Made by a program: the position numbers and the translations under genes. 46,073 bases of DNA, taken from positions 1 through 46,073 of the IMG/VR virus record IMGVR_UViG_3300027763_000090. One strand, 5' to 3'. The notes beneath the pieces were generated by a model that saw nothing but the letters and a program-made list of their open reading frames with translations, made no database searches and was not told where the DNA came from. This document shows positions 2,289-45,126 of the stretch, piece after piece. Source of the DNA: a virus. Each line of letters starts with the position of its first letter. Within the stretch, counting starts at the first letter, position 1.

Positions 2289-2938
2289 TGACAACAAACA
2301 ACCGGATTATTAACCCAGCGCCTCCTAACCTGCCGCTGAGCACGGATCAGTATGACCGCCGCTATCAAGATCAGTTTTTAAATATCCTGCGTTTGTACTT
2401 TAACCAGCTACAAAACTCTTTGACAGAACTGCTGGGCAACACAGGCGGCAAATACATTGCGTTTCCTTACGGGGCGTTTCAAGATTCCACAGATCAAACA
2501 GCCGCTAGCACAACTGTTGCCTATCCGGTCACATTTAACACCACAGACTTTTCAAATGGTGTGACTGTAGCCAGCAATAGCAAAATTACTGTGGCTTATG
2601 CTGGAATATGGAACTTACAGTTTTCCATTCAACTGACAAACACTACAAACGCTTCTCAAGACGTAGACATTTGGTTTCGGGTCAATGGCACAAACGTGGC
2701 TAATTCAAACAGCCGTTTTGGTTTAGCCGCAAGAAAATCTCCCGGTGATCCATATCACATTATTGCGGCGCTTAATTATTTTGTAAGTTTAAATGCAACT
2801 GACTATGTTGAGATAGTGTGGAGAACGACTGATACGGGTGTTTCAATTGAGCAATATCCCGCCAGTGCCAGCCCCACACGACCAGCAATTCCATCAGCCA
2901 TTGCCACACTTTCATTTGTGTCTGCGCTCCCACCATGA
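2288..2938 (+). CDS. Putative tail fibre or appendage protein with a C1q/TNF-like jelly-roll (216 aa)
   Basis: The start ATG overlaps the preceding stop (TAATG). Residues 1-55 are a helical leader (QDQFLNILRLYFNQLQNSLTE) that could trimerise or attach to the tail. Residues 60-216 form a beta-rich domain with the spacing of C1q-like folds: VTVASNSKITVAYAGIWNLQ, then DVDIWFRVNG and a closing IATLSFV strand. In phages such domains cap trimeric fibres and contact host surfaces; here that role is inferred. The protein is short for a receptor-binding fibre, so it may instead decorate the tail. No metal-binding or enzymatic motif was seen. Confidence 0.55.
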   Translation: MTTNNRIINPAPPNLPLSTDQYDRRYQDQFLNILRLYFNQLQNSLTELLGNTGGKYIAFPYGAFQDSTDQTAASTTVAYPVTFNTTDFSNGVTVASNSKITVAYAGIWNLQFSIQLTNTTNASQDVDIWFRVNGTNVANSNSRFGLAARKSPGDPYHIIAALNYFVSLNATDYVEIVWRTTDTGVSIEQYPASASPTRPAIPSAIATLSFVSALPP

Positions 2939-2972
2939 TATTATCGACCAACCCCCATTTTGAGAGGCAAAA

Positions 2973-5759
2973 ATGAGCCTTCACGTACTAGCTAATCACA
3001 TGGCATCTAAGGGTCGCAACGGCGATTCAATGCTTGTCCACATGACGCCCGGCGAAGTGCACGGGCTACAGGCTTTGGCCATGAAACATGGCGGATCTCT
3101 GACTACTAACCCAGATACGGGTTTACCCGAAGCTAACTTCTTAAAGTCATTGTTGCCAATGTTGGCAGGTTTTGCCCTTGGCCCAGCCGGTTTTGGCCTT
3201 GTTAGTTCTTCTATGGGAGCAGCCGCGCTGGTTGGCGGTGTTACGGGTATTGCTACTGGTAGTTTGTCTAAGGGACTCATGGCCGGGCTGGGTGCGTATG
3301 GTGGCTTTGGTATTGGTGAGAGTTTAATGAATGCGGGCTCTGCTGGGTTGGCGTCTACTGCCGGGGCTACTGCTGGAGCGGAAGCTACGCAACAAGGTGT
3401 TTCTGAAGCAATTAAAGCTCGTGCAATTGACGATGCCGCTATCTCCCAAGGATTTAATGAGGCAGTCGGTAAGACCGCCACGTCGGACGTATTAAGCGCT
3501 GGCGCTAAATCTGCTATGGCAGACCCCATGGCTTTTGCAAAACAAAACTGGAAACCAATTGCCGCCGCCGCACTACCCGTACTAAGCAATATTGGCACAA
3601 CGACTCCCGGTCAAGCACCGACACCTATGAGTCCCGGCAGAATCCGTGAGAAACGGTGGGATGGCCGTCAGTTTGTAGATGTTGCCAGTACAGATGCGGG
3701 TGTGTACAACACAAGCGGACGAAGCTTTTCTGACCTGTACCGTGGTTATAACGATGGCGGCATTGTTGCTTTGGCTGAAGGCGGCGACGTTAAGCATTTT
3801 GCTATTGGCGATCTTGTTAAAGCAGACATTGATAAAGCCTATGCCGCAGGCGATTACGGCAGAGTTAACGAACTTGCACAGGCAAACAAAATTACTGCCG
3901 CAGATGTGGCTGACACATACAAAGGTTTTGATACCTCTGGTTTGGCTGGTTTGGGTATCAATTTATTTACGCCCCCCGCACAACAAGCTGCACCAGTAGC
4001 TCAAGCTGCCGCAGTACCAGCGTACACAAGCTATACACCAGAGCAGATTGGTAGTTACTTAACAACTAACCCCACAGTAGATATTGGCGCAGCTACAAAA
4101 CAATTTAATGCCGACCCAACCGCAGTTAATGCGTATATTGCCAGTTTAGATAATCCGTTTGTAGGTTCTACTCTTGACACTCGCGGTTCTGGTACGCTTG
4201 GTATTTACAACCAAATGAAAGCGCAGGGTATTGATCCTACCGAGTTGTACAACGCTAGTTTAGCAGTTGATCCTAAGTATGCTGGTTGGTCACTAGCAGA
4301 CATTAAACGTGGATACAAGTTAGATGAAGGCGCATACGCACTTTCTAAACAGTTAAGCGGAAACGTTTCCGACAAAGACTGGGTTAAGTTCATGGATGAG
4401 GGTGGGTATTCCGTGAACGATATGGCGCAAGCGTTTGGTCTTTCTACCAGAGAAGTGCAAGCACGTTACGACGCGGCAAAAACAAAAACAGAAACCAAAA
4501 CAACACTTACTTGTGGCCCCGGAATGGAACCAAACGCGGCGGGCACTGCTTGCGTTCCTATAAAAATAATTGACAAAGGGTTACTACCAATTCCACCGTC
4601 TGGCTATCACTATGAAAACGGTGTGCTGGTCAAGAATATAGACGCTACACAGAACACATCAACAGACGTAACCGTACCCACAGACTTGTTTACAGCGCCA
4701 GCAACAGCGTTGCCCGTAGGCGTGTCTGGCAATACAGGCCCATCTCAAATTGGCGGCGGCGCTACAGTTAACCCCAACGGCACAATTACAACTTCCCCAC
4801 GTATCCCCGGTATTCCCGTTGGCGGCTTTACGGGTATGACAAGTTTGCGCGATGCGTACACCAAGGGTGGCGGCAGTCTGGGCTACACATCGCCTACTTT
4901 TAAATCCATTGAAGACTTCAACGCTAAATACCTCAACCGTATGGGCGGCGATTCTAAGGCGGCTTACGACTATCTCACAGGCAAAGGCGGTGCTGCTTAT
5001 CCTGTTAAATCTGGCGTGGGTCAAATTGCTAGGCCGTACGATGAAGCGGTGCTGGGCTACCCTGCACGGGGCAATTTACCGTACATCTACAACAAAGCCA
5101 CCGGTAAAATGGATGTCAATCCTGATTACGTGGCTCCCGGACGTGATGACAAAGGTAACGTGACGTACAGCATGTCACAGAACGACATTAAGAGTGCGTT
5201 AAAAGATAAACCTTTGGCTGGCCAAGAGTTGTATGAATGGGCAAAATCTAATAATCTAACTGCACAGCAGATCGCTGACGCTACTGGGCAGCCTTTATCA
5301 CAAGTTTACGCACAGTTTAGGGCGGGTTCTAAAGCTAAAGCCGATACGGATAAGAAAACCGCCGATGATAAAGCTGCCGCAGATGCGTCAAGTCCAGAAA
5401 ATGACAAGCGAGAAAGTGGCGGTGCAGCCGCTGGCGGCATGATGGGTTACGCCGTAGGTGGTGGTTTAGGCTCCCTTGGCTCTTACTCTGATGGTGGACG
5501 GTTGCTCAAAGGCCCCGGAGATGGTGTGTCTGACAGCATCCCTGCAACAATTGGCGCTAAACAGCAACCCGCACGCCTTGCCGATGGTGAGTTTGTGGTG
5601 CCCGCACGTATCGTGTCTGAACTAGGCAACGGCTCAACTGAAGCAGGCGCTAAAAAACTTTACGCCATGATGGATCGTGTGCAACGTGCACGGGGTAAGA
5701 CCACAGGCAAAAACAAAATAGCAGCTAACAGCCGCGCTGACAAATATCTTCCCGCTTAA
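2973..5759 (+). CDS. Large glycine/alanine-rich virion protein, probably internal or ejected (928 aa)
   Basis: A GAGAGG Shine-Dalgarno precedes the ATG. Residues 55-145 are hydrophobic and Gly/Ala-rich (AGFALGPAGFGLVSSSMGAA), which would suit membrane insertion. Residues 220-500 and 620-780 are low-complexity, Ala/Thr/Gln-rich linkers. Around residue 260 there is a DGGIVALAEGG segment, and residues about 840-905 carry a conserved-looking block with GPGDGVSDSIPA, ARLADGEFVVPAR and ELGNGSTEAGAKKLYAMM. I recognise this C-terminal block from environmental podovirus virion proteins, but I know no function for it. It is the first of three consecutive genes sharing short Gly-Gly-Gly motifs. A role in DNA ejection is inferred from composition and from the giant polyvalent protein downstream. 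Confidence 0.6.
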   Translation: MSLHVLANHMASKGRNGDSMLVHMTPGEVHGLQALAMKHGGSLTTNPDTGLPEANFLKSLLPMLAGFALGPAGFGLVSSSMGAAALVGGVTGIATGSLSKGLMAGLGAYGGFGIGESLMNAGSAGLASTAGATAGAEATQQGVSEAIKARAIDDAAISQGFNEAVGKTATSDVLSAGAKSAMADPMAFAKQNWKPIAAAALPVLSNIGTTTPGQAPTPMSPGRIREKRWDGRQFVDVASTDAGVYNTSGRSFSDLYRGYNDGGIVALAEGGDVKHFAIGDLVKADIDKAYAAGDYGRVNELAQANKITAADVADTYKGFDTSGLAGLGINLFTPPAQQAAPVAQAAAVPAYTSYTPEQIGSYLTTNPTVDIGAATKQFNADPTAVNAYIASLDNPFVGSTLDTRGSGTLGIYNQMKAQGIDPTELYNASLAVDPKYAGWSLADIKRGYKLDEGAYALSKQLSGNVSDKDWVKFMDEGGYSVNDMAQAFGLSTREVQARYDAAKTKTETKTTLTCGPGMEPNAAGTACVPIKIIDKGLLPIPPSGYHYENGVLVKNIDATQNTSTDVTVPTDLFTAPATALPVGVSGNTGPSQIGGGATVNPNGTITTSPRIPGIPVGGFTGMTSLRDAYTKGGGSLGYTSPTFKSIEDFNAKYLNRMGGDSKAAYDYLTGKGGAAYPVKSGVGQIARPYDEAVLGYPARGNLPYIYNKATGKMDVNPDYVAPGRDDKGNVTYSMSQNDIKSALKDKPLAGQELYEWAKSNNLTAQQIADATGQPLSQVYAQFRAGSKAKADTDKKTADDKAAADASSPENDKRESGGAAAGGMMGYAVGGGLGSLGSYSDGGRLLKGPGDGVSDSIPATIGAKQQPARLADGEFVVPARIVSELGNGSTEAGAKKLYAMMDRVQRARGKTTGKNKIAANSRADKYLPA

Positions 5760-5769
5760 GGAATAGATC

Positions 5770-6804
5770 ATGGCTTTACAAGAATCCTCACAGACAATAT
5801 CGCAAACCTCCATTCCCGACTACGCCAAGCCGTATGTTGAGAACCTGCTGGGGCAAGCGCAAAGCTATACTGATCCTTCTCAGAACCCCTACATGCAGTA
5901 CATGGGGGAGCGTCAGGCGCAGTTCTCTCCTTTACAGCAGATGTCTTACGACAATGCGGCGCTGATGCAAGGTTCTGACCAGTTAAAAGATGCGACTGCT
6001 ATGGCGGGTTCTGCCGGTTTGGGTGCGCTTAATACTGGATATACATACAACCCGTTCCAGACTAAATCGTTTACCAGCCCTGAAATGGCTGAGAGCTACA
6101 TGTCTCCGTACATGGCTAACGTAGTGGCACGCCAGCAACAAGATGCTCAACGTCAATCTCAGATTGCACAGCAAGCTCAAGGCGCTCAAGCGGCTCGTTC
6201 GGGTGCGTTTGGTGGTAGTGGCGATTACTTAATGCGTGCGCAAGCCGCTGGTAACTTAGCCCGTCAAAAGGGCGACATCTTTGCTCAAGGCCAGCAAGCC
6301 GCGTACACCCAAGGTATGGGGCAGTTTAACCAAGAGCAAGGCGCTACACAAGCGGCGGCTAACCTCAATGCACAACAAGGTCAATTTGGTGCAGGTCTGG
6401 GGCTTCAAGGATTGCAAACAGCACTGACAAGTGCTAACGCTTTGGGTAACTTGGGCAACACGCAGTACCAGCAGAACATGGGCATCAACCAGATGCAAAA
6501 TCAGTATGGCTTACAACAACAGCAGCAACAGCAAAACATTCTAAACAATCAGTATCAGGACTTTTTGAACAATCAGAACGCGCCGTACAAGCAGATGGGC
6601 TTCATGTCCGACATCCTGCGCGGTCTGCCATTGACTCAACAATCGTCAACGATGTACCAGACACCGCCATCAGCAGTCTCACAAGCTATTGGTCTTGGCG
6701 GCGCGGCATTAACTGGAGCCAAGATGTTTGCTGGCGGGGGTGCCGTTGACAATCGTCCTTCTGGATTGGCGGACTTGGCTATTTATCAAATGGGTCAGGA
6801 TTAA
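5770..6804 (+). CDS. Gln/Ala-rich helical virion protein, probably internal or DNA-transfer type (344 aa)
   Basis: It starts 11 nt after the previous stop, with an AAGGA site. The N-terminus (IPDYAKPYVENLLGQAQ) is followed by a long helical, Gln/Ala/Gly-rich middle (residues 120-260: QQDAQRQSQIAQQAQG) that resembles phage injection proteins such as the T7 gp14 or P22 gp7 classes in composition, not in sequence. A run of seven glutamines lies near residue 250. The C-terminus has AIGLGGAALTGAKMFAGGGA, a hydrophobic patch ending in the GGG motif also found in its two neighbours. It has no enzyme motif. A chaperone-dependent, channel-forming ejection protein is the favoured but unproven reading. 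Confidence 0.5.
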   Translation: MALQESSQTISQTSIPDYAKPYVENLLGQAQSYTDPSQNPYMQYMGERQAQFSPLQQMSYDNAALMQGSDQLKDATAMAGSAGLGALNTGYTYNPFQTKSFTSPEMAESYMSPYMANVVARQQQDAQRQSQIAQQAQGAQAARSGAFGGSGDYLMRAQAAGNLARQKGDIFAQGQQAAYTQGMGQFNQEQGATQAAANLNAQQGQFGAGLGLQGLQTALTSANALGNLGNTQYQQNMGINQMQNQYGLQQQQQQQNILNNQYQDFLNNQNAPYKQMGFMSDILRGLPLTQQSSTMYQTPPSAVSQAIGLGGAALTGAKMFAGGGAVDNRPSGLADLAIYQMGQD

Positions 6805-6806
6805 AC

Positions 6807-8618
6807 ATGGCTTACACACAACAAACGCCTATCGGCACACCTGACGTTAACCTGATTACAAAGACGTTGGCTAGTTTACAGCCGGATTCAGCGTTGCAGC
6901 AATATGCAATGCTGCATAAAAACAACCCATACATTTTGTCGTTGGCAAAGTCAGAATCAGACCGCCGCAAACAATTGCGAACAGCCGCGCAGGGACAAGT
7001 TGGCCAACAGCCTACTGTTGTAGATCAGAACATTGCTGGTATGGCTCAGCAACAGCTTCCAGAGAACCAAGGTATAGCGCAGATCCCTACTCCCAATATG
7101 CAAAGCATGGCTGATGGCGGTATTGCAGGATACGCAGACGACGAAGAAGGTATGGCCACCGGCGGTATGGGCGGCATGTTTAACTTTGCCCAGCAGAGCG
7201 AGCCTGTGGTGCGCATGTCTGGTGGTGGGTACATCCCCCGCTATCAAGGTAATACAACAGACGGCAGTGTTGTTAATTCAAGCGACCCGCAACTGCTTGC
7301 ACTAAAAGCCAAGTACGAAAAAGAAGCGGCAGAAATGGGTGAAGGTATTAGACGAGAGTTTAGTCCTGATGTTAAGGTTTTTGCACAACAGCTTTACAAG
7401 CCTGAAAAAACAGCACAAGACGCGTATTTAGCAAAAGAACAGAAACAAATGTTAGAAGGAAACCGGTTACGTAATAAAACGCAAGATTCAGCATCAATAG
7501 CTGCACCCACTGCACCCACTGCACCCACTGCACCCACTGCACCCACTGCACCCACTGCACCTACGGCTTCCGCGGCGTACGACCCAACAGAGAATCTTAA
7601 GAAGCTCGCACAGACAAACGCTAGGTACACAACTCCTTCTGAGCCAAAAAATGCGGAAGAAGCCGCAATGCTTAATCGGTATCCGGCCACAATGCCAGCT
7701 GCTGGTAAAGCACCCCCCGCTGCCGCGCCTGCACCTCAAAGTAACTTGCCTACAGGTCTTGCGTCTATTGCGCAAGCTAAGCAAGCGGGCGAAGAGTTGT
7801 ATGGCACCAAGGATTTGGAACGCAAGATTGAACAGAACCGGTTGCAGCAACGCACCGACATCACCAATGAAAAAGAAGAAAGTGCTGCAAAACTAGCCGC
7901 GTTTAACAAAGCGCAAGGCCCTGCTATGGCGGGGTACTCAAAACTGTTGGACTCGCAAGAAAAAGCAGACGTTTCTGACAAAGAAAAAGCTGGTTTGATG
8001 GCACTCTTCAAAGGTTTCTTGGGCATAGCCGCAGGCGAATCTCCAAACGCTGCTGTAAATATTGCCAAAGGTTCAATGGTTGGTTTAGAAGACTACAACA
8101 GTTCGCTAAAAGACCTTAAGAAAGCAGCTAAAGAACGTGACAAAGAGCGTGCCTATATTGAAAATGCCCAGCGTGCCGAAGGCCGTGAGGACTTTAAGTC
8201 TCAGCAGGCGTTTGAGAATAAAGCAAATGACGCCGCTCGTGCAGCGGACAATCACGCTATAGACGCTGTTACAAAAATTACAGGTTTAAAAGGCGAAGGG
8301 TCTGCAAGAGTGTATTCTGAAATGCTTCAGCAACAAGGCGCAAATGCCCGTACCAACGCACAAATTAACGCGCCTTCCGGCATTGAAAGGATTGTTGACC
8401 GCATGGCAAGGGATCCCAAGTTTGCCGAGTCTTATAAAAATTACGCATCTATTGGCCCAGAAGCTAAAGGGTTTGAAGCTGACTTGCAAGCGTACATTAA
8501 AAACCCAATGGTAATTAAAGCAACCAATCCTCCGCTTGCCGCACAGTTTGACGCAATTATTCAACAGCGTATGGGCAGCATGGTTAAACCGCAAGAAGGC
8601 GCGGGTTCACGAAGTTAG
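6807..8618 (+). CDS. Charged, coiled-coil virion-associated protein with an Ala-Pro-Thr repeat (603 aa)
   Basis: The ATG follows the previous stop by 2 nt, so it belongs to the same operon. Residues 95-150 hold three Gly-rich stretches (ADGGIAGYADDEEG, ATGGMGGM, RMSGGGYIPRY) like those in the two preceding proteins. Residues 233-253 are seven Ala-Pro-Thr triplets, probably an extended flexible hinge. Residues 330-560 are Lys/Glu/Ala-rich, strongly helical and likely coiled coil, with one hydrophobic segment (AGLMALFKGFLGIAAGE) near residue 400 that could touch a membrane. No catalytic motif was seen. It is probably packaged with, or assembled beside, the giant protein encoded next. Confidence 0.5.
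   Translation: MAYTQQTPIGTPDVNLITKTLASLQPDSALQQYAMLHKNNPYILSLAKSESDRRKQLRTAAQGQVGQQPTVVDQNIAGMAQQQLPENQGIAQIPTPNMQSMADGGIAGYADDEEGMATGGMGGMFNFAQQSEPVVRMSGGGYIPRYQGNTTDGSVVNSSDPQLLALKAKYEKEAAEMGEGIRREFSPDVKVFAQQLYKPEKTAQDAYLAKEQKQMLEGNRLRNKTQDSASIAAPTAPTAPTAPTAPTAPTAPTASAAYDPTENLKKLAQTNARYTTPSEPKNAEEAAMLNRYPATMPAAGKAPPAAAPAPQSNLPTGLASIAQAKQAGEELYGTKDLERKIEQNRLQQRTDITNEKEESAAKLAAFNKAQGPAMAGYSKLLDSQEKADVSDKEKAGLMALFKGFLGIAAGESPNAAVNIAKGSMVGLEDYNSSLKDLKKAAKERDKERAYIENAQRAEGREDFKSQQAFENKANDAARAADNHAIDAVTKITGLKGEGSARVYSEMLQQQGANARTNAQINAPSGIERIVDRMARDPKFAESYKNYASIGPEAKGFEADLQAYIKNPMVIKATNPPLAAQFDAIIQQRMGSMVKPQEGAGSRS
7503..7565 (+). repeat. 9-bp minisatellite coding for Ala-Pro-Thr
   Basis: There are six identical copies of GCACCCACT (7503-7556), followed by a seventh degenerate copy (GCACCTACG). 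The repeats are in frame, so changes in copy number would not break the 603-residue protein. The identity of six units at the DNA level suggests recent slippage. Confidence 0.95.
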
Positions 8619-8697: not shown

Positions 8698-11600
8698 ATG
8701 GCTCAGAACCTCCCCTTACCTGACGGAACCTCGGTAACTATTCGGGAGGGTGAGACTCCTGCACAGACGTGGGCTCGTGCGCAACGCATGTATCCCGAGG
8801 CGTTCAGGGCTAAAGAACCCGAGAAAAAAGAAGTTACGATTGGCGGTCAAGCCAAAGAGTTTTTTAAAGGTCTAGCCCCCGGCGCTATCAATCTGGTGGA
8901 GAGCGCGGCTATTGGCGCATCAGCACTACTCCCAGAAGAAACTGAAAAAGCCGCACGCTCTGGCATTGCAAGTCTTGCAAGTTCTGCCAAGAAACCGTTT
9001 GAAGCTGCGCCGGGCTACGAAGACACGGTGGCGCGTAAGTTTGGTGAAGCTGCCGGTTCAATCATTCCGTTTGTAGGACTTGGCCCGTTAGGTGCGGTAG
9101 GCCGTGTTGGTATGGGTGCGCTTGGTGCTGGCGCAGGTGCTGGAGAAGCACGTACTCGTGCCGAAGAAGGCGGAGCCACAGAAGGACAACGCGCAGGCGC
9201 AACCGCACTGGGCTCAGTGGTTGGTATCAGCGAGATGTTTGCCCCCGCTCGTATTCTGGGACGCATATCAGAGCCTGTTAAAGATGGCGCTGTATCTTAT
9301 GTCAAACGGGCATTGATGGCTGGCGGTGAAGAAGCCGCACAGGAAGCCGCGTCCCAAGCTGCGCAGAACTTAATCTCTAAAGGCATCTACAAACCTGACC
9401 AAGAAATTATTGAAGGCGTCGGCGAGTCCGCTGCTTATGGTGGCGCGGTTGGTGCGTTAGCGCAGGGCTTGTTTGACTTGGCTCTTGGTCGTCGTGCCAA
9501 AGGTGCGGGTAAACCCCAACAAGAAGAGTTTGCCAAGCTTCGTGCCGAGGAAGAGCAACGCCTTGAAGAAGAGCGTAAGCGTAAAACAACCCCTGAGTAC
9601 GCACAAGAAGTTGTGCAGAAGTATGACGAGTTGGCCAAACAAAGACAAGATTTGGTGGCGCAACTTAAAAAAGTGACAAAGGACTCCCCCACTTTTGATG
9701 CGGACAAAGCGTTCAATACTCAGATTAACGCACAAATTAAAGAGTTAAACAAAAGTATTACGCCGTTGGCTGACGACTACTACAAGTCAAAGAGCATGCT
9801 TGGTCAAATAGCAGAGCAAGAGCGTGTTGCCAAACTTACACCGCAAGAGTACGCGTTCGGTCTAGAGCCAGAGACAGAAGAGCAAAAGAAAGCGCTGGAA
9901 CCTGAGTTGTATGAGCAACAGATTGCTACACCGCCCAAGCCCCCAGTTCAGCTAACTCCTCGACAACAAGTTGCAGAGTACGGCAATCAACGTATTGCTT
10001 TGGCCAATGACCAGATGAATACTGCGGCCAGTTACGCGCCCAAGTACAAGTCGGAAGCTATTAAAGACTACACAGATTATTTGATGCAGGACTTTGCTTC
10101 TGCACAACAGCTTGTACAAACAAGGCCTACGCTAGAAGGTCTGCCAATGACAAAGGACAACAAGCCTTTGTTGCGCAGCGAAGAGATTTACGACTCTTTA
10201 AAAACACGCATAGCAGCAGAAGCCAAAACAGCTATGCAACAACGTTCGCAAGAACAGGCGCTTGACCAACAAAAGCTTACTACGCCAAAAGACCAGTTTG
10301 CTTTGTTGCGTGCGTCGGAAGAACAAGTTGAAGAGCAGAAGAGAACGGCTGAACCTAACTTTGATTATCTTGACCCAATGTTTGAGCAAGCTTTATCTGG
10401 TCAATCCGCAGTCAAAGTCAACGAAAACCTCCGGCCACTGCGCGAAGCGCCTACAGTGCGCAGAACAGTTGAGCAACTGCTTGAGAATGCGGAGAAAGCT
10501 GACAGCGAGTACCGCGCACTCCGTCGTCAAGGCAATAGAGATGCAGCCATGGAGTCATTCCAAAGGCTTAGCGAGGCCAATGACCAGTTAAATGCAATGG
10601 TTAAAGGCGGAGCTGCGGATGAAGACGGTCGAGCCTCTTACGCCCGTGAACTTATCAACGCTCGCCGTGCGCAACAAGAAGCCATGGCAAGAGTGGAAGA
10701 TGCAACGCTTGGCGTAAAGACAGAGCAGACGCTTGGCAGAGATATGACTGGCGCAAATACAGAAGCCGGTCTGGTTAAACGTGCAGAAGACGCTCGTGCT
10801 GATTTTATTAAAGCGGCTCTACAAGAAGCGGCCATTCATCGTCGTGCCTTAAACAAACCTGCACTGACAACAGACGAAGCGCTCGTTGCCGCGTCTAAAC
10901 TTCATGATACCTTTAACAACTGGATTGAGCGTTCTAAAGCCAAGCCCGTTGCTGAGATTACTGAGCGGCCAACATTTGAAACCGTGATTGTTCAACCTGC
11001 GCAAATGCGGGCAAACAAGATTGTGCGTGCGGCAGTTACTGAACGTAGATATAGCGACATAAAACCACCACCACCTGCTGGACAAGGGTTCAATGGTAGT
11101 TGGAAAAAAATAGATACGCCAAAAATAAAAGCGTTGAAAGACCAGATTACTACAGTAGTTGAAGGTTCAGCTACAGCCGATTTAGATAAGCGTTCAAACG
11201 CCGCTATCCAAGACACTATCCGGGAGCTGTCCAAGAAGATGCCCCCGTTTCTTTGGAAGTGGACTCCTACTGAATCAGCAGACACCCGCTTAAATGAAAT
11301 TTCTAAACTTAGCGAAGCTGAAGTTAAACACTTCAAGTCCATCATTGAGTCTGCCAGAAACAAGCTGACAGAAGAAGCCCCAAGCAAAGTTCAGAAACTA
11401 GAAGCCAAACCGCTCAACGTTCAGTTTGCTTCAGAGGAAGCCAAGAAGACTGCTGAAGCCCGTGGCGAGACAGCCACAACGCTTGGCGGAGAATTGCGTC
11501 GCCGTACAGAGTTTGTACGCAACAAGATGTCTAAGATGAGGCGTATGCGCCCCGGTGCCCGTGATGCGCTTAATGCTGCCGTTGATATTATGGACGCAGG

Positions 11601-14600
11601 CAAAGCTACTCGCGAGCTATTGGACAAAGTTGAGCCTGTGGTTGACGCCATCGTTGCAGGACGCGACGTTAAACAGGTAGACATTCAAGCCATCAAGGAC
11701 GCTATCCGCGCTACTGAGACTGTGCCTGAGGGTCAGAAATCGCTGTTCCCCGAGATAGAAAAAGATCTGGGCTACATCCGCGCAACACCAAAGAACTTTG
11801 CTAAGTCACCGCGCATGAAGCCTGTGTGGGAAGCGCTAGATAAAGCTCGTGCTTTGTTTAAAAAATCTGAGCAACAACGTCTTGCCAAAAAAGCAACAGT
11901 GGCCAAGCGCATGCAGTTTCTTGAAAGAGTTAAAGAACGCGGCGACAGCATCATTGCAGACACGCAGTATTTTTGGAAAGACACAAGCCGCTACTCTGAT
12001 GAGGCGTTAGCAAAAGTGTTTGTGGGCATGCCAGAAGCAGGCACAACGCCAGAAGAAAAAGTTATTCTGGAAAAGTATCGCACGTTACAACCCATGTCTG
12101 CGCAAGAACAACAGACCGCTGAGCGTTTGGTAAGAGAATTTAAAACAGAACATTTGCCCAAGTACAGAAAAGAAATTGACGAGGCTATGCAAATGCTAGC
12201 CGACGGACGCCGTCTTGACGATACAGACAATCAGTTGTTGTCATTTATGCAAGACACCAATGTAAACGTCCGCGCAGCAGCAAAAGCTTTAAACGATAGA
12301 TTGCAACCGCTTCGCACAGCTATCAAGCAAGTTAAAGAAGCTATGCGAAAGTCGTCAATCATAGACCCCGCGCAAAAAGCAATTCTTAATTCTGAGATAG
12401 CCATTAAGCAACAACGTTCACAGTACCAAACCGTTGTAGAAGAATCCATTAAACGTGCTCGTAAGGAGATGGATGAAGCGTTGGGCTTCTTGTTAGAACC
12501 TGTTATTGCTAAAACAAGCGACAACCTCAAGGCGGCAGAAGCAACGCTTGCCAAAGAACAGGCAGAATTGGACAAGATTAAGAAACGTTTTGATGCGGTG
12601 CTGGCGCAAAAAAATGGTGCTAACCGTACCGAGCTTGCCACATACGAGTTGTTCCGCTACGAAGAAAAGAAGAGTGCCATTGACGACCTTAAAAAACAAA
12701 TTGACGCGCAAGAGACAGAACTTCAAGATTTGGTGAACGAACTTGCAACAGACTACGACGGCGGCTACGCCGTAGCGCAAGCCATGCTTGACAGCAACGT
12801 TAAGTTTGAACGTCAGTATTTAGAAATGTTGGAAGGCAGCCTTGCCAACATGCGCGGAGAGAGCGTTCTTGACAGACCCGGCTCCTACCCGTTTGCTTAC
12901 CAACAAGCTAAGAAAAACGCTGACGCTCAAAGAGCTACGCTTAAAGCTGCTGAGAAACGTGCAACGGAGTTTGGCGAAGTTGCTAAGTCTGACCAACAGA
13001 AAATGGAAGAGTTCTGGAAAGCCAAGTTGGGCGGAGAAGGTATCAAGCGCGAAGAAGGCAAAGTAGACCGCATTGAGACTTCTGCTGAAAAAGAAGCAGA
13101 GCGTTTGCGCAAAGAAGCGTCGGAAGCATTAGAGCGCGAAGAAGACGCGTTTATGCGCACCGCTCGCAAAGAACAGATATTTAAAACGTACGGCGACCAG
13201 ATTGCTGATTTGTTATTTGAGGCTGAAGGTATTCCCGGCCCTAATACTGAAGCTGAGCTTAAGAAGATCATCAACGATCCAAAGTCTGAGTTCCAAGATG
13301 TTATCAACGCACAGGCAAAAGTTGGTGTGTTGCAAACGATTACATCTATTGAGGCACAAGCAGACGTGCTCCTTGAGGGCAAACCAAAACGCAAACAAAG
13401 CGCCGCAACAACGCTAAGCTCCACTGGACAAGCTAAAGGCAAACCGTTGCGTGCAGGCACATTGTCTGAGAAGAGCATTGAGCGGTTGTTTAAACCTGAA
13501 CCAGCTAAAACAATTGTCGATCGTTTTGACTTTGGTGCAATAGATCGCGAAGAAGCGGACATAGGACGTAGCAGTGAAGGCCGGACACAAGGCAGTTTTG
13601 ACTTTAACGGGGACTTCAACTTCTCACGCGGCAAGCCAGCCAACAGCACAACCGCCAAGGCTTTGAAGGAAGAGCTTGATGAAGCCATGGGCACCGACGT
13701 GACCGCACGCGGCAACGTAAAAATCTATAGCAGCGTTGCTGCTTTTGTAAAAGACAACCCAAAGTACGCAGACAAGATTCCTTCAGACGCCAAAGGCTTT
13801 GCTGAAAACGAACGCGCAGTATTGTTTGCAGACAATATTGGTAAAGGCCAAGGCCTTGGCGTGTTGCTACACGAGATTGGTGTGCACGTTGGCTTCCGCA
13901 ACTTCTTTAACGAAGCGCAGTTCAAACGCTTAGCCGACACAGTCAAAGGTTGGGCTAAACGCACAGACGGTTCTATTGAAGCGCAGATTGGCCGCAAGGC
14001 TATGCAACGCGTTGAGGCAGCGCAGACTCCTGCAAAACAAGTTAACGACGAACTGTTGGCTTACGCGGTTGAAGAAGCGGTACAGGCTGGAGTGTTGGAG
14101 ACTAAGAAAGGTTCTGCTTACGGCTGGTTAAGCTCAATCATTGACGCTTTTAAGAAAGCGCTGAACAAGTTTGGCATTCCGACTAGCCAGTTTACCGCCG
14201 GTGATTTGGTTAACTTTGCTCATGGTTGCGCCCAGCTTGAACTTCGTGGCACATGGCACGGTACACATGCCGGATTTGACATGTTTGACTTTGCTTTTAT
14301 GGGTACCGGAGAAGGGGCGCAGGCTTTTAGTTGGGGCACTTACCGCGCTCAGAAAAAAGGTATTGCTGCAAGCTACAAAGATGTTGGAAAACAAAGGCGA
14401 ATAGAAGAGTGGAACAAGCTTCCTGAAATTATTAAATGGAAAAAGTCGTCGGAGCCAACGTATGAGGGGTATACAGTCGACAATTTTATAGAGTTTGCGC
14501 AATCTTCTAAAAATAAAAACAAAGAGTTGGCAGGTATTCCGCACAAATACGCGTTGGACTTTTCTATGGTGATGTCGTTTACAGACATTAGTAGTGATGA

Positions 14601-17600
14601 TAACTTCTTTTTTGACCCTTACAACGATTCCCCTGCGCAACGTTGGAGTAATGCGCTAGCTCGGTTTGACAATGGTTTGGATGAGGGATTGCTTCCCTTG
14701 GAGGACAACGTTAAACAATTCCTTTTAAAAGTGGACTTGGGCAAATTTCAAACGCCATATAAAGATCCAACATTCCATGGGTACGACTGGGACAACCTCA
14801 GAATGTCGTTTAGAGCAGACGAGAAAAACCAAACCCCAACAAATATGGCGGCTGAAGAAGTGTTGTGGGCGTTGCGACAAAATACGGCTACCGACACTTT
14901 TGAAAAAAAGCTTGATGATGCAATAACCGCTGTAAAAAAAGAAGCAGAGGAAACTGTTCAATCTTTTAAAAAAATTGCACCCGAGTCTGATTACTACAAA
15001 AATGCCAAAGCTGTTTTGGAAGGTTTAGAAATAATAGGCAAAAGCGACTTTGTATTTAATCCTAGAAAACCACCGCCTATACCTGAACCAACAACGGGCG
15101 GTGTGTTGATGCGGACAATACACACGCGTCCAGAAGACACATATTTGCTGTGGGACTCCCCACTTAATAAGCAGCCTGCTCCTGTAAACGAGGCGCTTAA
15201 AAATATCCTTCGTGATATGCGTCCAGACGCTAGACGACAGTTTGATCGCATAGTAAATGCTATAGGTGAAAATACGGGTGCTTCTTTCTACGAAGCGCTT
15301 AAGCTAATTTCGCAGAGCAAACGCCTTGCGTCTGAAATTCTTGCGTCTTATGGTATTTCAGGCAACAAGTTTTTAGACCACAGTTCTAGATATAAACCTG
15401 TTACTTCAAGGTCTACATACAACTTTGTTGATTACGTTGACAAAGAAGAAGGCGCAGAAATTGTTGCAATAGACCTTGAGCCCATTGGTAAAGCCAAAGG
15501 TATCCTGTTGTCACGCAAGCCACAGTTTGCAGACCCTGAGTTTGAAAGAGTAAGCTCAACTGTTACCAGAACAGTGGCGCAGGACAAGACTTGGTGGGAC
15601 AGCATCAAGGTCAACTTAACAGGCCTTGCGTTCGAGACACAGCTTGTTGACCGCTTTGCAGGCTTTGAGCGTTTGGCTAAGTACATGGAGCCGCTCAAAG
15701 GCACGCAGATGTTGTACTACCTCCGTTCGTACGACCAACGCATGAACATTGTGTCTAAGGCCGTGTCTGATGGAGCGCCCTCAATTCGTGAAATAAAGCG
15801 TGATGATGGCCGTGTTGAGCGTCTTGTTGAGACAACAGGCGGTGCCAGTATTGCCGGTGTTGTAAACAAACTAAAGGAAGCCAACCAGTACATTGGTAAC
15901 GGCGAGGCTGTCAACCAAGTGTTTACAACTTACATGGCGGCTATTCGTGCCAAGAACAAAGGCATTGAGACGCTTAACTTTGGTAAGGACAAAAACGGCA
16001 AGCCTGTGTTGACACAGGAAATGCTTGATGAAGTTACTGCTTTAGTTAACAAGAACAAAGCGCTTAAAGACATCTTTGAGGAAGCCCGTACAGAGTACAA
16101 CAAGTACAATCGCGACCTTTTGGACTTTGTAGCCAGCACTGGCGCTTTGTCTAAAGCACTCGTCAAGAAGCTCGTAGCAGAGGACGATTACATCCCGTTC
16201 TATCGTGAGCGCAAAGGTGTCGTCGAGTTGGTGATTGGCAACGAGAGCCCCATCCGCATCGGCAGTATTGCAGATCAACCTTACCTAGACAAGTTGGTGG
16301 GAGGTGACACAGCCATCATTGACTTTATGAATAGCTCGGTGCAGAACACCAACATGTTGGTGGACATGGGCATGCGCAACCTTGCAACCAAGAACGCAGT
16401 CATGGAACTGGTCGACCTAAAAGCTGCTACGTTGGTTAAAAAAGCTGAGGGCACAGACGTTGTCAAATTTAAAGTAGACGGAGATGACCGTTACGCAATC
16501 ATTGCTACAGAGAAGGTAATGATAGGCAACAAGGAGTTTGAGACAGGCGTGCCTGCGGACATCTTGGTCAAGGGCATGGAGGGTATCCCCACGCAGATGC
16601 CGTTCCTGTTCCGTGTCATGGCTATGCCTGCGCAACTCTTACGTAAAGCTATTACGCTAAGCCCTTTGTACATGGCTAAGCAGTTGTTCCGTGACTCGTT
16701 GGCGGCTCCTATCCTGTCAGGCGCGGACTTCATGCCTGTGCTTGGCGCTTTGAAAGAGATCAACGGTGCGGCTAAAGAGAAGCTAGAGAAGCGCGGCATT
16801 GTGGGCGGGCAGTACTTCCGTGGCACAAGTGAAGATTTGTCAATGATTCTGCGCGAGATTACAGACGGTCAGCCCGGATGGATGAAAGCTCTGGGAAGGT
16901 TTGAAGCAATGGGTATGGAGGCGGACGCTCTTACACGTCGTGCCCAGTACAACAGCTACATTGAACAAGGCTTGTCAGAGATGGAAGCTACGCTCATGGC
17001 GCTTGAGTCCATGAACTTTAACAAACGCGGAGCTTCTCCAAGTGTGCACGTAGCCAACGCATTGATACCTTTCTTCAACGCACAGATCCAAGGTCTGAAC
17101 GTGATGTACAAGGCAATGTCCGGCAATATGCCTTTCAACGACCAACTGCGCATCCGTGAAAAAATGTTGACGCGTGGTGGCATGATGGCGGCGGCTACGT
17201 TTGCCTACGCCGTGATGATGGAGGACGACGAAGCCTATAAGAACGCTACGCCAGACCAGAAGTACGGCAACTGGTTCATACGTCTGCCCGGCTTGGATGA
17301 GCCTATCAAAATCCCTGTGCCGTTTGAAATTGGTTACATCTTCAAAGCTATCCCTGAGGCGCTGTACAACAGCATGACCACAGAACATGGCGGAGAAGAA
17401 GCAGTCAAGGCGTTCAAACAGATCTTGTTGCAGACAATTCCCGGCGGCTCATCGTATGGCATACCGCAAGCGGCCAAGCCTTTGATCGAAGTAGGTCTTG
17501 GCAAGTCGTTCTACACAGGCCGCGACCTTTTGTCAGAACGCGAAAAGCAGTTGTTGCCTGAAGAGCAGTACCGCGTCAACACAACCGATGCCGCCAAGTT

Positions 17601-18120
17601 TGTCGGTAGTACCTTGGGCGTGTCGCCAATTAAGATTGAGGCGCTTGTCAACGGCTATACAGGAACGATGGGTCTAGCTTTCTTGCAGGCTATCAGCCTT
17701 GGCGTACCAGTTAAAGAGACCCCAGAGAGGGCGGTCAGGCGTTTGTCTGAGTACCCAATTATCGGCGGTGCGTTCCAACCTAACGACGCAGGCGGCATCA
17801 TCAACTCTGTGTACGAGCGTATGAACGATGTTCTGCAAGTTAAGAACACGGTTAATAAATTGGTGGAAGAGGGCAAGGTGCAAGAAGCTGAAGCCTTGAT
17901 TACCAAGCGCGGCACAGAATATATGCAGTCTGAACTGGCCAACACGTTTAAGACAAACATGAACATGTTGACCAAAGCCGAGCGTGCTATTGCCGCATCT
18001 GATATGACTGGCGAAGCCAAGCGTAAGCAACTTGACGAGATTAGGAAGATGAAGATTGCGATTGCAAATACGACGCGGGAAATTTCCGATAAAACCATAC
18101 GCCTAATTGGTGGTTCTTGA
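8698..18120 (+). CDS. Giant polyvalent virion protein: putative metallopeptidase, ART-PolyVal and LPD38-like domains (3140 aa)
   Basis: It begins with an AGGA site and MAQNLPLPDGTSVTIREGET. Residues about 45-260 are Gly/Ala-rich and partly hydrophobic (AGSIIPFVGLGPLGAVGRVG). Residues 260-1690 are mostly charged coiled coil. At 1725-1730 the motif HEIGVH appears, with possible third ligand E1785 (NDELLAYAVE); this looks like the metallopeptidase of polyvalent proteins, but the spacing is HExxxH, not HExxH. Residues about 1850-2275 match the ADP-ribosyltransferase of polyvalent proteins: WHGT (1853), GEGAQAFSWGTY (from 1871), YLLWDSPL (from 2149) and FLDHSSR (from 2224). Residues about 2400-2700 end in ITLSPLYMAKQLFRDS, the signature I associate with LPD38. 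Polyvalent proteins are thought to enter the host with phage DNA and modify host targets. Domain names are from memory, not from a search. Confidence 0.75.
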   Translation: MAQNLPLPDGTSVTIREGETPAQTWARAQRMYPEAFRAKEPEKKEVTIGGQAKEFFKGLAPGAINLVESAAIGASALLPEETEKAARSGIASLASSAKKPFEAAPGYEDTVARKFGEAAGSIIPFVGLGPLGAVGRVGMGALGAGAGAGEARTRAEEGGATEGQRAGATALGSVVGISEMFAPARILGRISEPVKDGAVSYVKRALMAGGEEAAQEAASQAAQNLISKGIYKPDQEIIEGVGESAAYGGAVGALAQGLFDLALGRRAKGAGKPQQEEFAKLRAEEEQRLEEERKRKTTPEYAQEVVQKYDELAKQRQDLVAQLKKVTKDSPTFDADKAFNTQINAQIKELNKSITPLADDYYKSKSMLGQIAEQERVAKLTPQEYAFGLEPETEEQKKALEPELYEQQIATPPKPPVQLTPRQQVAEYGNQRIALANDQMNTAASYAPKYKSEAIKDYTDYLMQDFASAQQLVQTRPTLEGLPMTKDNKPLLRSEEIYDSLKTRIAAEAKTAMQQRSQEQALDQQKLTTPKDQFALLRASEEQVEEQKRTAEPNFDYLDPMFEQALSGQSAVKVNENLRPLREAPTVRRTVEQLLENAEKADSEYRALRRQGNRDAAMESFQRLSEANDQLNAMVKGGAADEDGRASYARELINARRAQQEAMARVEDATLGVKTEQTLGRDMTGANTEAGLVKRAEDARADFIKAALQEAAIHRRALNKPALTTDEALVAASKLHDTFNNWIERSKAKPVAEITERPTFETVIVQPAQMRANKIVRAAVTERRYSDIKPPPPAGQGFNGSWKKIDTPKIKALKDQITTVVEGSATADLDKRSNAAIQDTIRELSKKMPPFLWKWTPTESADTRLNEISKLSEAEVKHFKSIIESARNKLTEEAPSKVQKLEAKPLNVQFASEEAKKTAEARGETATTLGGELRRRTEFVRNKMSKMRRMRPGARDALNAAVDIMDAGKATRELLDKVEPVVDAIVAGRDVKQVDIQAIKDAIRATETVPEGQKSLFPEIEKDLGYIRATPKNFAKSPRMKPVWEALDKARALFKKSEQQRLAKKATVAKRMQFLERVKERGDSIIADTQYFWKDTSRYSDEALAKVFVGMPEAGTTPEEKVILEKYRTLQPMSAQEQQTAERLVREFKTEHLPKYRKEIDEAMQMLADGRRLDDTDNQLLSFMQDTNVNVRAAAKALNDRLQPLRTAIKQVKEAMRKSSIIDPAQKAILNSEIAIKQQRSQYQTVVEESIKRARKEMDEALGFLLEPVIAKTSDNLKAAEATLAKEQAELDKIKKRFDAVLAQKNGANRTELATYELFRYEEKKSAIDDLKKQIDAQETELQDLVNELATDYDGGYAVAQAMLDSNVKFERQYLEMLEGSLANMRGESVLDRPGSYPFAYQQAKKNADAQRATLKAAEKRATEFGEVAKSDQQKMEEFWKAKLGGEGIKREEGKVDRIETSAEKEAERLRKEASEALEREEDAFMRTARKEQIFKTYGDQIADLLFEAEGIPGPNTEAELKKIINDPKSEFQDVINAQAKVGVLQTITSIEAQADVLLEGKPKRKQSAATTLSSTGQAKGKPLRAGTLSEKSIERLFKPEPAKTIVDRFDFGAIDREEADIGRSSEGRTQGSFDFNGDFNFSRGKPANSTTAKALKEELDEAMGTDVTARGNVKIYSSVAAFVKDNPKYADKIPSDAKGFAENERAVLFADNIGKGQGLGVLLHEIGVHVGFRNFFNEAQFKRLADTVKGWAKRTDGSIEAQIGRKAMQRVEAAQTPAKQVNDELLAYAVEEAVQAGVLETKKGSAYGWLSSIIDAFKKALNKFGIPTSQFTAGDLVNFAHGCAQLELRGTWHGTHAGFDMFDFAFMGTGEGAQAFSWGTYRAQKKGIAASYKDVGKQRRIEEWNKLPEIIKWKKSSEPTYEGYTVDNFIEFAQSSKNKNKELAGIPHKYALDFSMVMSFTDISSDDNFFFDPYNDSPAQRWSNALARFDNGLDEGLLPLEDNVKQFLLKVDLGKFQTPYKDPTFHGYDWDNLRMSFRADEKNQTPTNMAAEEVLWALRQNTATDTFEKKLDDAITAVKKEAEETVQSFKKIAPESDYYKNAKAVLEGLEIIGKSDFVFNPRKPPPIPEPTTGGVLMRTIHTRPEDTYLLWDSPLNKQPAPVNEALKNILRDMRPDARRQFDRIVNAIGENTGASFYEALKLISQSKRLASEILASYGISGNKFLDHSSRYKPVTSRSTYNFVDYVDKEEGAEIVAIDLEPIGKAKGILLSRKPQFADPEFERVSSTVTRTVAQDKTWWDSIKVNLTGLAFETQLVDRFAGFERLAKYMEPLKGTQMLYYLRSYDQRMNIVSKAVSDGAPSIREIKRDDGRVERLVETTGGASIAGVVNKLKEANQYIGNGEAVNQVFTTYMAAIRAKNKGIETLNFGKDKNGKPVLTQEMLDEVTALVNKNKALKDIFEEARTEYNKYNRDLLDFVASTGALSKALVKKLVAEDDYIPFYRERKGVVELVIGNESPIRIGSIADQPYLDKLVGGDTAIIDFMNSSVQNTNMLVDMGMRNLATKNAVMELVDLKAATLVKKAEGTDVVKFKVDGDDRYAIIATEKVMIGNKEFETGVPADILVKGMEGIPTQMPFLFRVMAMPAQLLRKAITLSPLYMAKQLFRDSLAAPILSGADFMPVLGALKEINGAAKEKLEKRGIVGGQYFRGTSEDLSMILREITDGQPGWMKALGRFEAMGMEADALTRRAQYNSYIEQGLSEMEATLMALESMNFNKRGASPSVHVANALIPFFNAQIQGLNVMYKAMSGNMPFNDQLRIREKMLTRGGMMAAATFAYAVMMEDDEAYKNATPDQKYGNWFIRLPGLDEPIKIPVPFEIGYIFKAIPEALYNSMTTEHGGEEAVKAFKQILLQTIPGGSSYGIPQAAKPLIEVGLGKSFYTGRDLLSEREKQLLPEEQYRVNTTDAAKFVGSTLGVSPIKIEALVNGYTGTMGLAFLQAISLGVPVKETPERAVRRLSEYPIIGGAFQPNDAGGIINSVYERMNDVLQVKNTVNKLVEEGKVQEAEALITKRGTEYMQSELANTFKTNMNMLTKAERAIAASDMTGEAKRKQLDEIRKMKIAIANTTREISDKTIRLIGGS

Positions 18121-39873: not shown

Positions 39874-40476
39874 ATGTTAGATCACTTGGTGCATTTTGAA
39901 CCTGAGGTCACCGCTCGGGGAAACTTTGAAAAACTGGACGACGCGACGCCCAGTGATATTCTGTCGGCGCAAGTTGCTACAGAGCAGTGGTTAGCAGAGT
40001 TAGGTGTGGATGACGACGAAGTGGTTGCTAACCAACAGCAGACACAGGCGGCGCGAAAAGCGTTTAATGCCGTGACCACCAACACGGACAGCGCCGATCA
40101 AAAAGCATCTCTTGCGGAACTAAAAACCCCAGCGGCTGTAAGACATCTAACAGGTATGTTGGCTGCGTACGACTGGCAGTTTATAGACATGGCGCAGGAG
40201 ATCCGGGGCTACACGGTAGCTAAACTGGTTGAAGAGACAAAGTCCCCCAACGCCAACATCCGCTTGAAAGCTTTAATCGCGCTAGGCAAGGTCACGGAAG
40301 TGGGGCTCTTTACTGAGCAGATTGAGGTCAAAAAGATTGAGATGTCTGATGCTGAAGTTGAGCAACGCATCAAAGATAAGTTGGCCAAGTTCATGGGGGT
40401 GATAGACGTGGTGGACGTTTCCGAGCGCCCAGATGATAGTCCAGTGGAGAAGAATGATGGGCCAGATGGACTTTGA
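39874..40476 (+). CDS. terS: Terminase small subunit (200 aa)
   Basis: It is immediately upstream of, and overlaps, the large terminase. The sequence is helical with an acidic start (EQWLAELGVDDDEVVANQQQ) and a helix-turn-helix-like middle (AAYDWQFIDMAQEIRGYTVA, then KSPNANIRLKALIALGKVTE). The helical end (VKKIEMSDAEVEQRIKDKLA) would oligomerise. Small terminases bind the packaging site and recruit the large subunit; that role is inferred mainly from position. It is the first gene of the rightward unit. Confidence 0.75.
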   Translation: MLDHLVHFEPEVTARGNFEKLDDATPSDILSAQVATEQWLAELGVDDDEVVANQQQTQAARKAFNAVTTNTDSADQKASLAELKTPAAVRHLTGMLAAYDWQFIDMAQEIRGYTVAKLVEETKSPNANIRLKALIALGKVTEVGLFTEQIEVKKIEMSDAEVEQRIKDKLAKFMGVIDVVDVSERPDDSPVEKNDGPDGL

Positions 40477-44511: not shown

Positions 44512-44702
44512 TCCAAGACTTCGTACGCGTATTACGTGAAAAAATACGCACTGACATGAACAACTATGCCGATGACTTGGCTGGGGGTTCGTGCCGTACT
44601 TTTGAAGAGTACCAAAAACTCTGCGGGATTATTCAGGGTCTAGCCCTTGCAGAGCGTTATCTACTTGACCTTGCACAGAAAGTTGAAGAATCTAATGAGT
44701 GA
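44508..44702 (+). CDS. Small conserved protein between portal and co-chaperonin (64 aa)
   Basis: The start overlaps the portal stop (ATGA). The sequence (MNNYADDLAGGSCRTFEEYQ, then GIIQGLALAERYLLDLAQKV) is two helices with a conserved look I have met in other phages next to portal genes. It may aid portal or capsid assembly; no function is established. It overlaps the GroES-like gene by 8 nt. Confidence 0.75.
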   Translation: MIQDFVRVLREKIRTDMNNYADDLAGGSCRTFEEYQKLCGIIQGLALAERYLLDLAQKVEESNE

Positions 44703-45126
44703 TCTTGATCTCTCCCCCGGTGCTTTTGCACTGCCTGAACCCATCCAATCTTTGGATGCACCCGAGCCTGATGCTTCAGACGAAATGAAAGCCACGCAAC
44801 TTCCCACCCCAACAGGTTGGAAGATTCTTTGCGCTGTGCCAGATGTCGACGAGAAGATTGCAGGGTCAAACCTGTATAAACCAATTGAGTTTATGCGCCA
44901 AGAAGAAACAGCAACCACTGTGTTGTTTGTTTTGAAAGTAGGCCCTGATGCGTACAACGACACCGCCAAGTTTCCTAACGGGGCATGGTGTAAAGAGGGC
45001 GACTTTGTGTTAGTACGTACTTACTCCGGTACAAGATTTAAGATCTTTGGCAAGGAGTTTCGTCTCATCAACGATGACCAAGTTGATGCTGTTGTGCAAG
45101 ACCCTCGCGGCCTGACCCGCGCTTGA
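44695..45126 (+). CDS. GroES-like phage co-chaperonin (143 aa)
   Basis: The ATG at 44695 lies within the end of the preceding gene. Residues 35-143 read as a Cpn10 fold: PTPTGWKILCAVPDVDEKI, then the mobile-loop-like region with ETATTVLFVLKVGPDAY, and GDFVLVRTYSGTRFKIFGKE with FRLINDDQVDAVV at the end. The first 34 residues are an acidic, Pro-rich extension. Like T4 gp31, it would replace host GroES so that GroEL can fold the large capsid protein, which fits its place just before the scaffold gene. Confidence 0.85.
   Translation: MSDLDLSPGAFALPEPIQSLDAPEPDASDEMKATQLPTPTGWKILCAVPDVDEKIAGSNLYKPIEFMRQEETATTVLFVLKVGPDAYNDTAKFPNGAWCKEGDFVLVRTYSGTRFKIFGKEFRLINDDQVDAVVQDPRGLTRA

What the first reader, a model, noticed from the sequence alone, without database searches (positions are those of the whole stretch)
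8698..18120. 3140-residue protein uniting a metallopeptidase-like, an ADP-ribosyltransferase-like and an LPD38-like domain
One gene takes up a fifth of the window. It holds a hydrophobic Gly-rich N-terminus, about 1400 residues of coiled coil, HEIGVH, a WHGT...GEGAQAFSWGTY...YLLWDSPL domain, and an LPD38-like end. If ejected with the DNA it would deliver two enzyme activities to the host before any phage gene is expressed, possibly against host defence. The targets are unknown.
Basis: partly seen in the sequence, partly recalled or inferred. Interest (0 to 1): 0.75.

Follow-up and report, generated by a model that had tools for sequence, protein, structure and literature searches.

The report
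Giant phage ejection protein carrying enzymes
This is a 3140-residue phage protein that is probably squirted into the bacterium with the viral DNA: an ejection-type body carrying an exchangeable cargo (a peptidase-like and an ADP-ribosyltransferase-like domain) bracketed by a short repeated motif that may be where the cargo is cut free.

Summary
The ORF and all quoted motifs are real. It is a polyvalent protein (known class, Iyer 2017). LPD38 is certain (E 3e-30). The ART is supported by a sub-threshold Pfam hit in 18 of 34 relatives, structural matches to ART-PolyVal proteins (E ~1e-8) and an invariant H1854/Y1882/D2227. The peptidase-like domain is a HExxxH zincin variant (HEIGVH), conserved in dozens of relatives; no family model detects it. 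New here: (1) the MPT-ART region is a cassette, replaced at least ten times on a tree of the conserved C-terminal core, even between phages with 91% identical cores. (2) The cassette is bracketed by an F/L-S-R motif in low-confidence linkers; the C-side copy occurs in 31/34 relatives with the HExGxH module and 0/25 without it (8 independent pairs, p = 0.008). Self-excision at these sites is my inference, untested. (3) The protein has one cysteine in 3140 residues, like ejected proteins of T7, P22 and N4, and follows a DNA-ejection-protein gene; this supports ejection. A core homologue in E. coli phage PTXU04 is essential (PMC11879866), so the core is probably not merely anti-defence. ART targets, peptidase activity and virion presence remain unproven.

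The parts
8698..18120 (+). whole polyvalent ejection-type protein, 3140 aa, one Cys (C1844)
8698..13467 (+). N-terminal scaffold, residues 1-1590; Gly-rich hydrophobic stretch about residues 110-200, then charged helical-type sequence
   Evidence: composition; largely conserved (66-84% identity in several close relatives) while the cassette differs
13621..13632 (+). upstream border motif FSRG, residues 1642-1645
   Evidence: 88/94/94/100% conserved in a linker with pLDDT < 50; motif in 41 of 48 HExGxH proteins at this distance, 3.1 expected
13633..14253 (+). HExxxH zincin-like (MPT) module, residues 1646-1852; HEIGVH 1725-1730 at 13870-13887; second-helix Glu E1785/E1792/E1793
   Evidence: alignment of 18 diverse modules with invariant H, E, G, H, E; AF2 secondary structure
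14254..15474 (+). ADP-ribosyltransferase-like domain, residues 1853-2259; H1854 (14257), Y1882 (14341), D2227 (15376) invariant; 345 residues between Y and D
15505..15516 (+). downstream border motif LLSR, residues 2270-2273
15541..18102 (+). conserved core, residues 2282-3135, the part shared by all relatives
17227..17760 (+). LPD38 (PF18857), residues 2844-3021
   Evidence: E 3.1e-30
5770..6804 (+). DNA ejection protein (phrog_4287), 344 aa, no Cys
   Evidence: E 6.7e-15; found upstream of the giant in most relatives whose flank is held; Cys count
6807..8618 (+). 603-aa protein between ejection protein and giant, no Cys, order conserved in most relatives

Best explanation
The protein is the largest of three adjacent ejection-type proteins of a tailed phage, probably a podovirus (344 aa, 603 aa, 3140 aa). 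Its C-terminal LPD38 core is the conserved part, probably needed for ejection or DNA entry. Upstream sits an exchangeable enzyme cassette: a HExxxH zincin-like peptidase followed by an ADP-ribosyltransferase of the polyvalent-protein (H-Y-D) type. I propose that the chain leaves the virion through the tail, that the peptidase then (or during assembly) cleaves at the two F/L-S-R borders and frees the ART unit from scaffold and core, and that the ART modifies a host macromolecule at the start of infection. Shown by computation: domain identities, cassette exchange, border motifs, cysteine exclusion, synteny. Inferred: virion location and ejection. Speculative: cleavage at F/L-S-R, the enzyme activities, the host target.
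For: LPD38 E 3.1e-30. ART-PolyVal sub-threshold in the window (E 0.0047, 18.1 bits, cut-off 31.2) and in 18 of 34 relatives, next family 2 of 34; Foldseek BFVD prob 1.0, E 3.9e-8 and 8.7e-8 to ART-PolyVal-like proteins; H, Y, D invariant in six close relatives, the configuration Iyer et al. give for this ART family (PMC5512222). MPT: invariant H-E-G-H and Glu in 18 diverse modules; N-helix, strands, HExxxH helix, Glu helix in the model; the same paper reports a polyvalent MPTase set with HEXXXH. Ejection: 1 Cys in 3140, 135 relatives median 0%; T7 gp15 and gp16, P22 gp7/gp20/gp16 and N4 gp50/gp51/gp52 have none, the other listed proteins of these phages 0.7-1.2%; gene order. JC1 gp69, a distantly related giant, is in CsCl-purified virions with 51 unique peptides (PMC9144972). 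PTXU04_00025, a core homologue (tblastn E 1e-32), is essential by knockdown (PMC11879866). Cassette swaps. Border motifs.
Against: No protein data for this phage. No model passes a cut-off for the ART or detects the MPT. No PDB structure matches either predicted model, and VIA-align gave nothing above Z 5. N4 vRNAP, with a canonical HExxH domain, is packaged unprocessed (PMC5512222), so these domains need not cleave. F/L-S-R is absent from most prophage ART-PolyVal proteins sampled and from a HEIGVH protein in L170, so it is not universal. Relatives with other HExxxH forms (HEIAGH, HEVTGH, HEVVGH) lack it. The link to JC1 gp69 is weak (tblastn E 0.02, MPT module only).
Confidence: 0.6

Rival explanations
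1. The HExxxH domain is a host-directed effector protease, not a processing enzyme; the F/L-S-R motifs are only linker or docking peptides that travel with the cassette.
For: Iyer et al. consider effector roles possible (PMC5512222). The motifs lie inside the exchanged block, so physical linkage alone could explain part of the co-occurrence with the MPT module.
Against: Both motifs stay when the ART between them is replaced by another subtype or is absent (L120, L121, L126), are conserved while most neighbouring linker positions are not, and their codons vary, so the constraint is on protein.
Confidence: 0.25
2. The cassette is a degenerate, inactive remnant and the protein is purely structural (ejection conduit).
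For: HMM scores for ART are weak; the canonical HExxH is not present; the core alone is shared by all relatives; the core homologue in PTXU04 is essential although no WHGT-type ART motif was found in it.
Against: Catalytic-type residues of both domains are invariant among divergent relatives, and the cassette is repeatedly replaced as a block rather than eroded.
Confidence: 0.12
3. The protein is made early in the infected cell and is not packaged; the position among structural genes and the low Cys content are coincidental.
For: No virion proteomics of this phage exists.
Against: Cys count P about 6e-15 under an assumed background of 1.16%; synteny with an ejection protein and structural genes; JC1 gp69 in virions.
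Confidence: 0.06
4. The F/L-S-R borders are DNA recombination sites that promote cassette exchange.
For: They lie close to the borders of exchanged segments.
Against: All four TCN serine codons and CGC/CGT/AGA arginine codons are used at the motif; conservation is of amino acids, not bases.
Confidence: 0.04

Closest known systems
Phage polyvalent proteins (Iyer et al. 2017, PMC5512222)
   Same: Very large phage protein near virion genes, with MPTase, ART and LPD38 domains; the HEXXXH MPTase variant and the H-Y-D ART are described there
   Different: Divergent ART with 345 residues between Y and D; the bracketing F/L-S-R motif is not mentioned in that paper (text search); cassette exchange between near-identical cores is documented here
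N4 virion RNA polymerase gp50 and ejectosome
   Same: Giant Cys-free ejected protein with a zincin-type domain before a large helical C-terminal region, encoded beside two smaller Cys-free proteins
   Different: Carries an RNA polymerase, has canonical HExxH, is packaged unprocessed; homology of its C-terminal region to LPD38 was not tested
Burkholderia phage JC1 gp69 (DarB-like)
   Same: Giant (4515 aa) protein encoded last in the virion module, no Cys in the 4128 residues read, weakly similar MPT region, found in virions by mass spectrometry
   Different: HEAFH (canonical form), no bracketing F-S-R, different body
Escherichia phage PTXU04_00025
   Same: Matches about 85% of the C-terminal query, no Cys, HEIIVH (a HExxxH form), encoded after two smaller proteins; essential
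   Different: 2197 aa, 22% identity, no WHGT-type ART motif found
T4 Alt
   Same: Virion-carried ADP-ribosyltransferase delivered with DNA
   Different: R-S-E ART clade, not part of a polyvalent protein (PMC5512222)

Membership tests
LPD38 (PF18857) | score above the gathering cut-off over the model | tested here: met
   106 bits vs 27, positions 1-188 of 189
ART-PolyVal (PF18760, Tox-ART-HYD2 clade) | score above gathering cut-off 31.2 | tested here: not met
   18.1 bits, E 0.0047, profile 10-50 only; 18 of 34 relatives hit below E 1, best E 0.0024. Membership of the curated Pfam family is therefore not claimed, only of the wider ART kind
ART-PolyVal (PF18760, Tox-ART-HYD2 clade) | active site H (strand 1), Y (strand 2), D (strand 5) | tested here: met
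ART-PolyVal (PF18760, Tox-ART-HYD2 clade) | fold like known ART-PolyVal proteins | tested here: met
   Foldseek BFVD, several ART-PolyVal-like proteins, prob 1.0, E down to 3.9e-8; long gapped alignments with low TM, so recognised rather than well superposed
ART-PolyVal (PF18760, Tox-ART-HYD2 clade) | NAD+-dependent transferase activity | not testable with these tools
   needs biochemistry
Polyvalent zincin-like MPTase | HEXXH motif, or the HEXXXH variant reported for one set | tested here: met
   HEIGVH = HEXXXH; canonical HEXXH itself is not present; H, E, G, H invariant in 18 modules
Polyvalent zincin-like MPTase | N-helix, three-stranded sheet, HEXXH helix, second helix with Glu | tested here: met
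   H54-65, E75-78, E101-104, E107-111, H120-132, H180-197 of the model, with E1785, E1792 and E1793 invariant; local pLDDT about 55-85
Polyvalent zincin-like MPTase | detected by a curated family model | tested here: not met
   no Pfam match in window or relatives; membership in a Pfam MPTase family is therefore not claimed
Polyvalent protein | several unrelated biochemical domains in one polypeptide encoded near virion genes | tested here: met
Phage ejection protein | packaged in the virion and released into the cell | not testable with these tools
   indirect support only: Cys exclusion, synteny, distant virion protein JC1 gp69

The most novel reading that the evidence does not exclude
A plug-in delivery protein: the HExGxH peptidase recognises its own F/L-S-R border motifs and cuts the effector cassette out of an ejected carrier, and phages exchange whole peptidase-effector cassettes between nearly identical carriers, so each cassette brings both its cutter and its cut sites.
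Probability: 0.33. Interest if true: 0.82.

Novelty: new variant of a known kind. Interest (0 to 1): 0.57.

Why it matters
The idea that polyvalent proteins are cut into working units by an embedded peptidase was proposed in 2017, but no cut site was named in the passages read. The bracketing F/L-S-R motif gives a specific site that one mass-spectrometry or mutation experiment can test, and a core homologue exists in an E. coli laboratory phage. If right, it would explain how a phage delivers several enzymes on one ejected chain, with exchangeable cargo. The cysteine-free signature, noted before for N4-like polymerases, may serve as a simple screen for other ejected proteins.

Tried and rejected
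PDB searches: sequence profiles of the cassette and the core gave no credible match; Foldseek no match below E 0.001 for either model; the VIA-align second look gave no Z above 5. DNA-level search in phage records: no match. Pfam on other relatives' cassettes: no family above cut-off, so what replaces the ART in L005, L013 or L015 is not identified. The idea that F-S-R is universal for ART-PolyVal proteins was tested on bacterial-genome loci and rejected: only L181 showed it around the ART. The idea that F-S-R goes with every HExxxH domain was rejected: L010, L015, L026, L028 and L031 have other HExxxH forms without it at the junction. DNA recombination site: rejected on codon variability. YLLWDSPL as catalytic acid: rejected, D/N variable. 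Gene-by-gene homology with JC1 structural proteins: none by BLASTP. A genome-contig scan with the MPT alignment found only five weak loci. One literature search for the motif found nothing relevant, but the library holds only open-licence papers.

Full report
What is there. ORF 8698-18120 (+) encodes 3140 residues in a 46,073-base IMG/VR virus record. Full-length Pfam search finds LPD38 only (residues 2844-3021, E 3.1e-30). A slice covering 1845-2290 gives ART-PolyVal at E 0.0047, below its cut-off. The peptidase slice matches no family.

Relatives. Pairwise mapping shows a sharp pattern. In the nearest relatives almost the whole chain aligns. In the L005-L008/L022 group, residues 1-784 and 868-1679 are 66-70% identical and 2277-3140 are 91% identical, but 1680-2276 is replaced by about 340 residues with no BLASTP match to the window protein, containing HELVH. 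L010, L013, L014, L015, L017 and L026 carry other arrangements. On a tree of 72 cores the HExGxH module changes state at least 10 times. The middle is thus an exchangeable cassette on a conserved body.

The ART. In 34 relatives scanned one by one, 18 hit ART-PolyVal and no other family is hit by more than two. The AlphaFold model of residues 1600-2330 (mean pLDDT 72.5) matches viral ART-PolyVal-like predictions in Foldseek with probability 1.0. H1854, Y1882 and D2227 are invariant in the six closest relatives; the published active site of this ART family is H, Y, D on strands 1, 2 and 5 (PMC5512222). The D of YLLWDSPL is not conserved. A second ART-like subtype (GAGEGAFDRRFD...LGxGPYTTP) follows the same peptidase module in other relatives, and in L120, L121 and L126 the module runs almost straight into the core. 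I therefore read the ART as real and divergent, with a long insertion.

The peptidase-like module. HEIGVH is HExxxH. In 18 modules down to 33% identity H, E, G and H, a second-helix Glu and an E-E pair are invariant, and the model has the helix, three strands, HExxxH helix and Glu helix order described for polyvalent MPTases. The 2017 paper explicitly reports a set with HEXXXH. No curated model detects it, so I call it a zincin-like domain by motif, conservation and predicted topology, not a member of a Pfam family.

Border motifs. F-S-R-G lies just before the module (residues 1642-1645) and L-L-S-R just before the core (2270-2273). In 34 aligned cassettes these positions are 88/94/94/100% and 91/74/100/94% conserved, whereas most flanking linker positions are well below that; F-S-R-G and L-L-S-R both lie in segments with pLDDT below 50. 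At the core junction the motif is present in 31 of 34 non-redundant proteins with the HExGxH module and in none of 25 without. Corrected for descent, 7-8 of 8 independent pairs agree and none disagree, p = 0.008. The upstream copy is found in 41 of 48 HExGxH proteins at the expected distance, 3.1 expected after shuffling. Synonymous codons vary freely, so the constraint is on protein. Distant relatives of the module in Pseudoalteromonas phage Y7, Shewanella phage Y11, L176 and L177 also carry F/Y-S-R 76-98 residues before a HELGGH motif; in L177 and L178 it begins eight residues after a Pfam-scored ART. Limits: it is absent from most ART proteins of bacterial genomes, from L170, and from the junction of relatives with other HExxxH forms; and because the motifs travel inside the cassette, part of the association is linkage. 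I infer, but have not shown, that they are cut sites for the adjacent peptidase. The patterns were written after seeing the motif, so the p-values are exploratory.

Ejection. The protein contains one cysteine; 135 giant relatives have a median of zero. As a check I counted known ejected proteins: T7 gp15 and gp16 (2065 aa), P22 gp7, gp20, gp16 (1309 aa) and N4 gp50, gp51, gp52 (4294 aa) contain none, while the other listed proteins of these phages have 0.7-1.2%. T7 gp14 has one, and some scaffolding and capsid proteins are Cys-free too, so the signature is neither absolute nor exclusive. Others noted the lack of cysteine in N4-like vRNAPs and proposed the same reason, passage through tail or periplasm (PMC3715699, PMC3915230). 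The gene follows a DNA-ejection protein (phrog_4287) and a 603-aa protein, an order kept in most relatives with enough flank. A distantly related giant, JC1 gp69, is a virion protein (PMC9144972). In E. coli phage PTXU04 the core homologue gp25 is needed for efficient plaque formation (PMC11879866). That argues that the carrier has a basic infection role beyond delivering anti-defence enzymes.

Conclusion. New are the cassette exchange on near-identical carriers, the bracketing motif and the cysteine evidence. What the ART modifies, whether the peptidase is active, and whether it cuts the protein itself remain open.

Noticed in passing
L106 (giant ORF, residue 2098), L111 (1733), L053 (2052); also L123 and L127 after the MPT module: A twin-arginine-signal-like stretch (SRRAFLRGAVAAVGG, TRRQFLQGAGAV) follows the peptidase module inside the giant protein; L053 also has a weak Pfam TAT_signal hit. 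If the chain were cut upstream, it could become an N-terminal export signal.
   Followed up: partly
junctions of L010, L015, L026, L028-L051: Relatives without the HExGxH module show other short motifs ending in Arg at the same core junction (LVYR, LLYR, ALYR; AFR, QYR), as if each cassette class had its own border motif.
   Followed up: no
window 45137-46073 and 1-150: The ORF after the GroES-like gene runs off the end and no capsid gene was found among the proteins scanned, so the contig seems to break inside the structural module.
   Followed up: no
window 44647-45126: GroES-like co-chaperonin domain (phrog_3188) next to the portal gene; Pelagibacter phage HTVC027P has one annotated in its structural module too.
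   Followed up: no
window 2288-2938: 216-aa protein with a weak BclA C-terminal domain match (E 1.7e-5, below cut-off) among the structural genes.
   Followed up: no
L180, L182, L183 (one open frame of 4850 aa in a gammaproteobacterial MAG): Three ART-PolyVal domains in tandem in one protein.
   Followed up: no
window 40433-42007: The terminase is about 50% identical to those of Pelagibacter phages HTVC027P/HTVC023P and 45% to Planktothrix phage Pag-Yong1, which also has a giant protein annotated 'large polyvalent protein'.
   Followed up: partly
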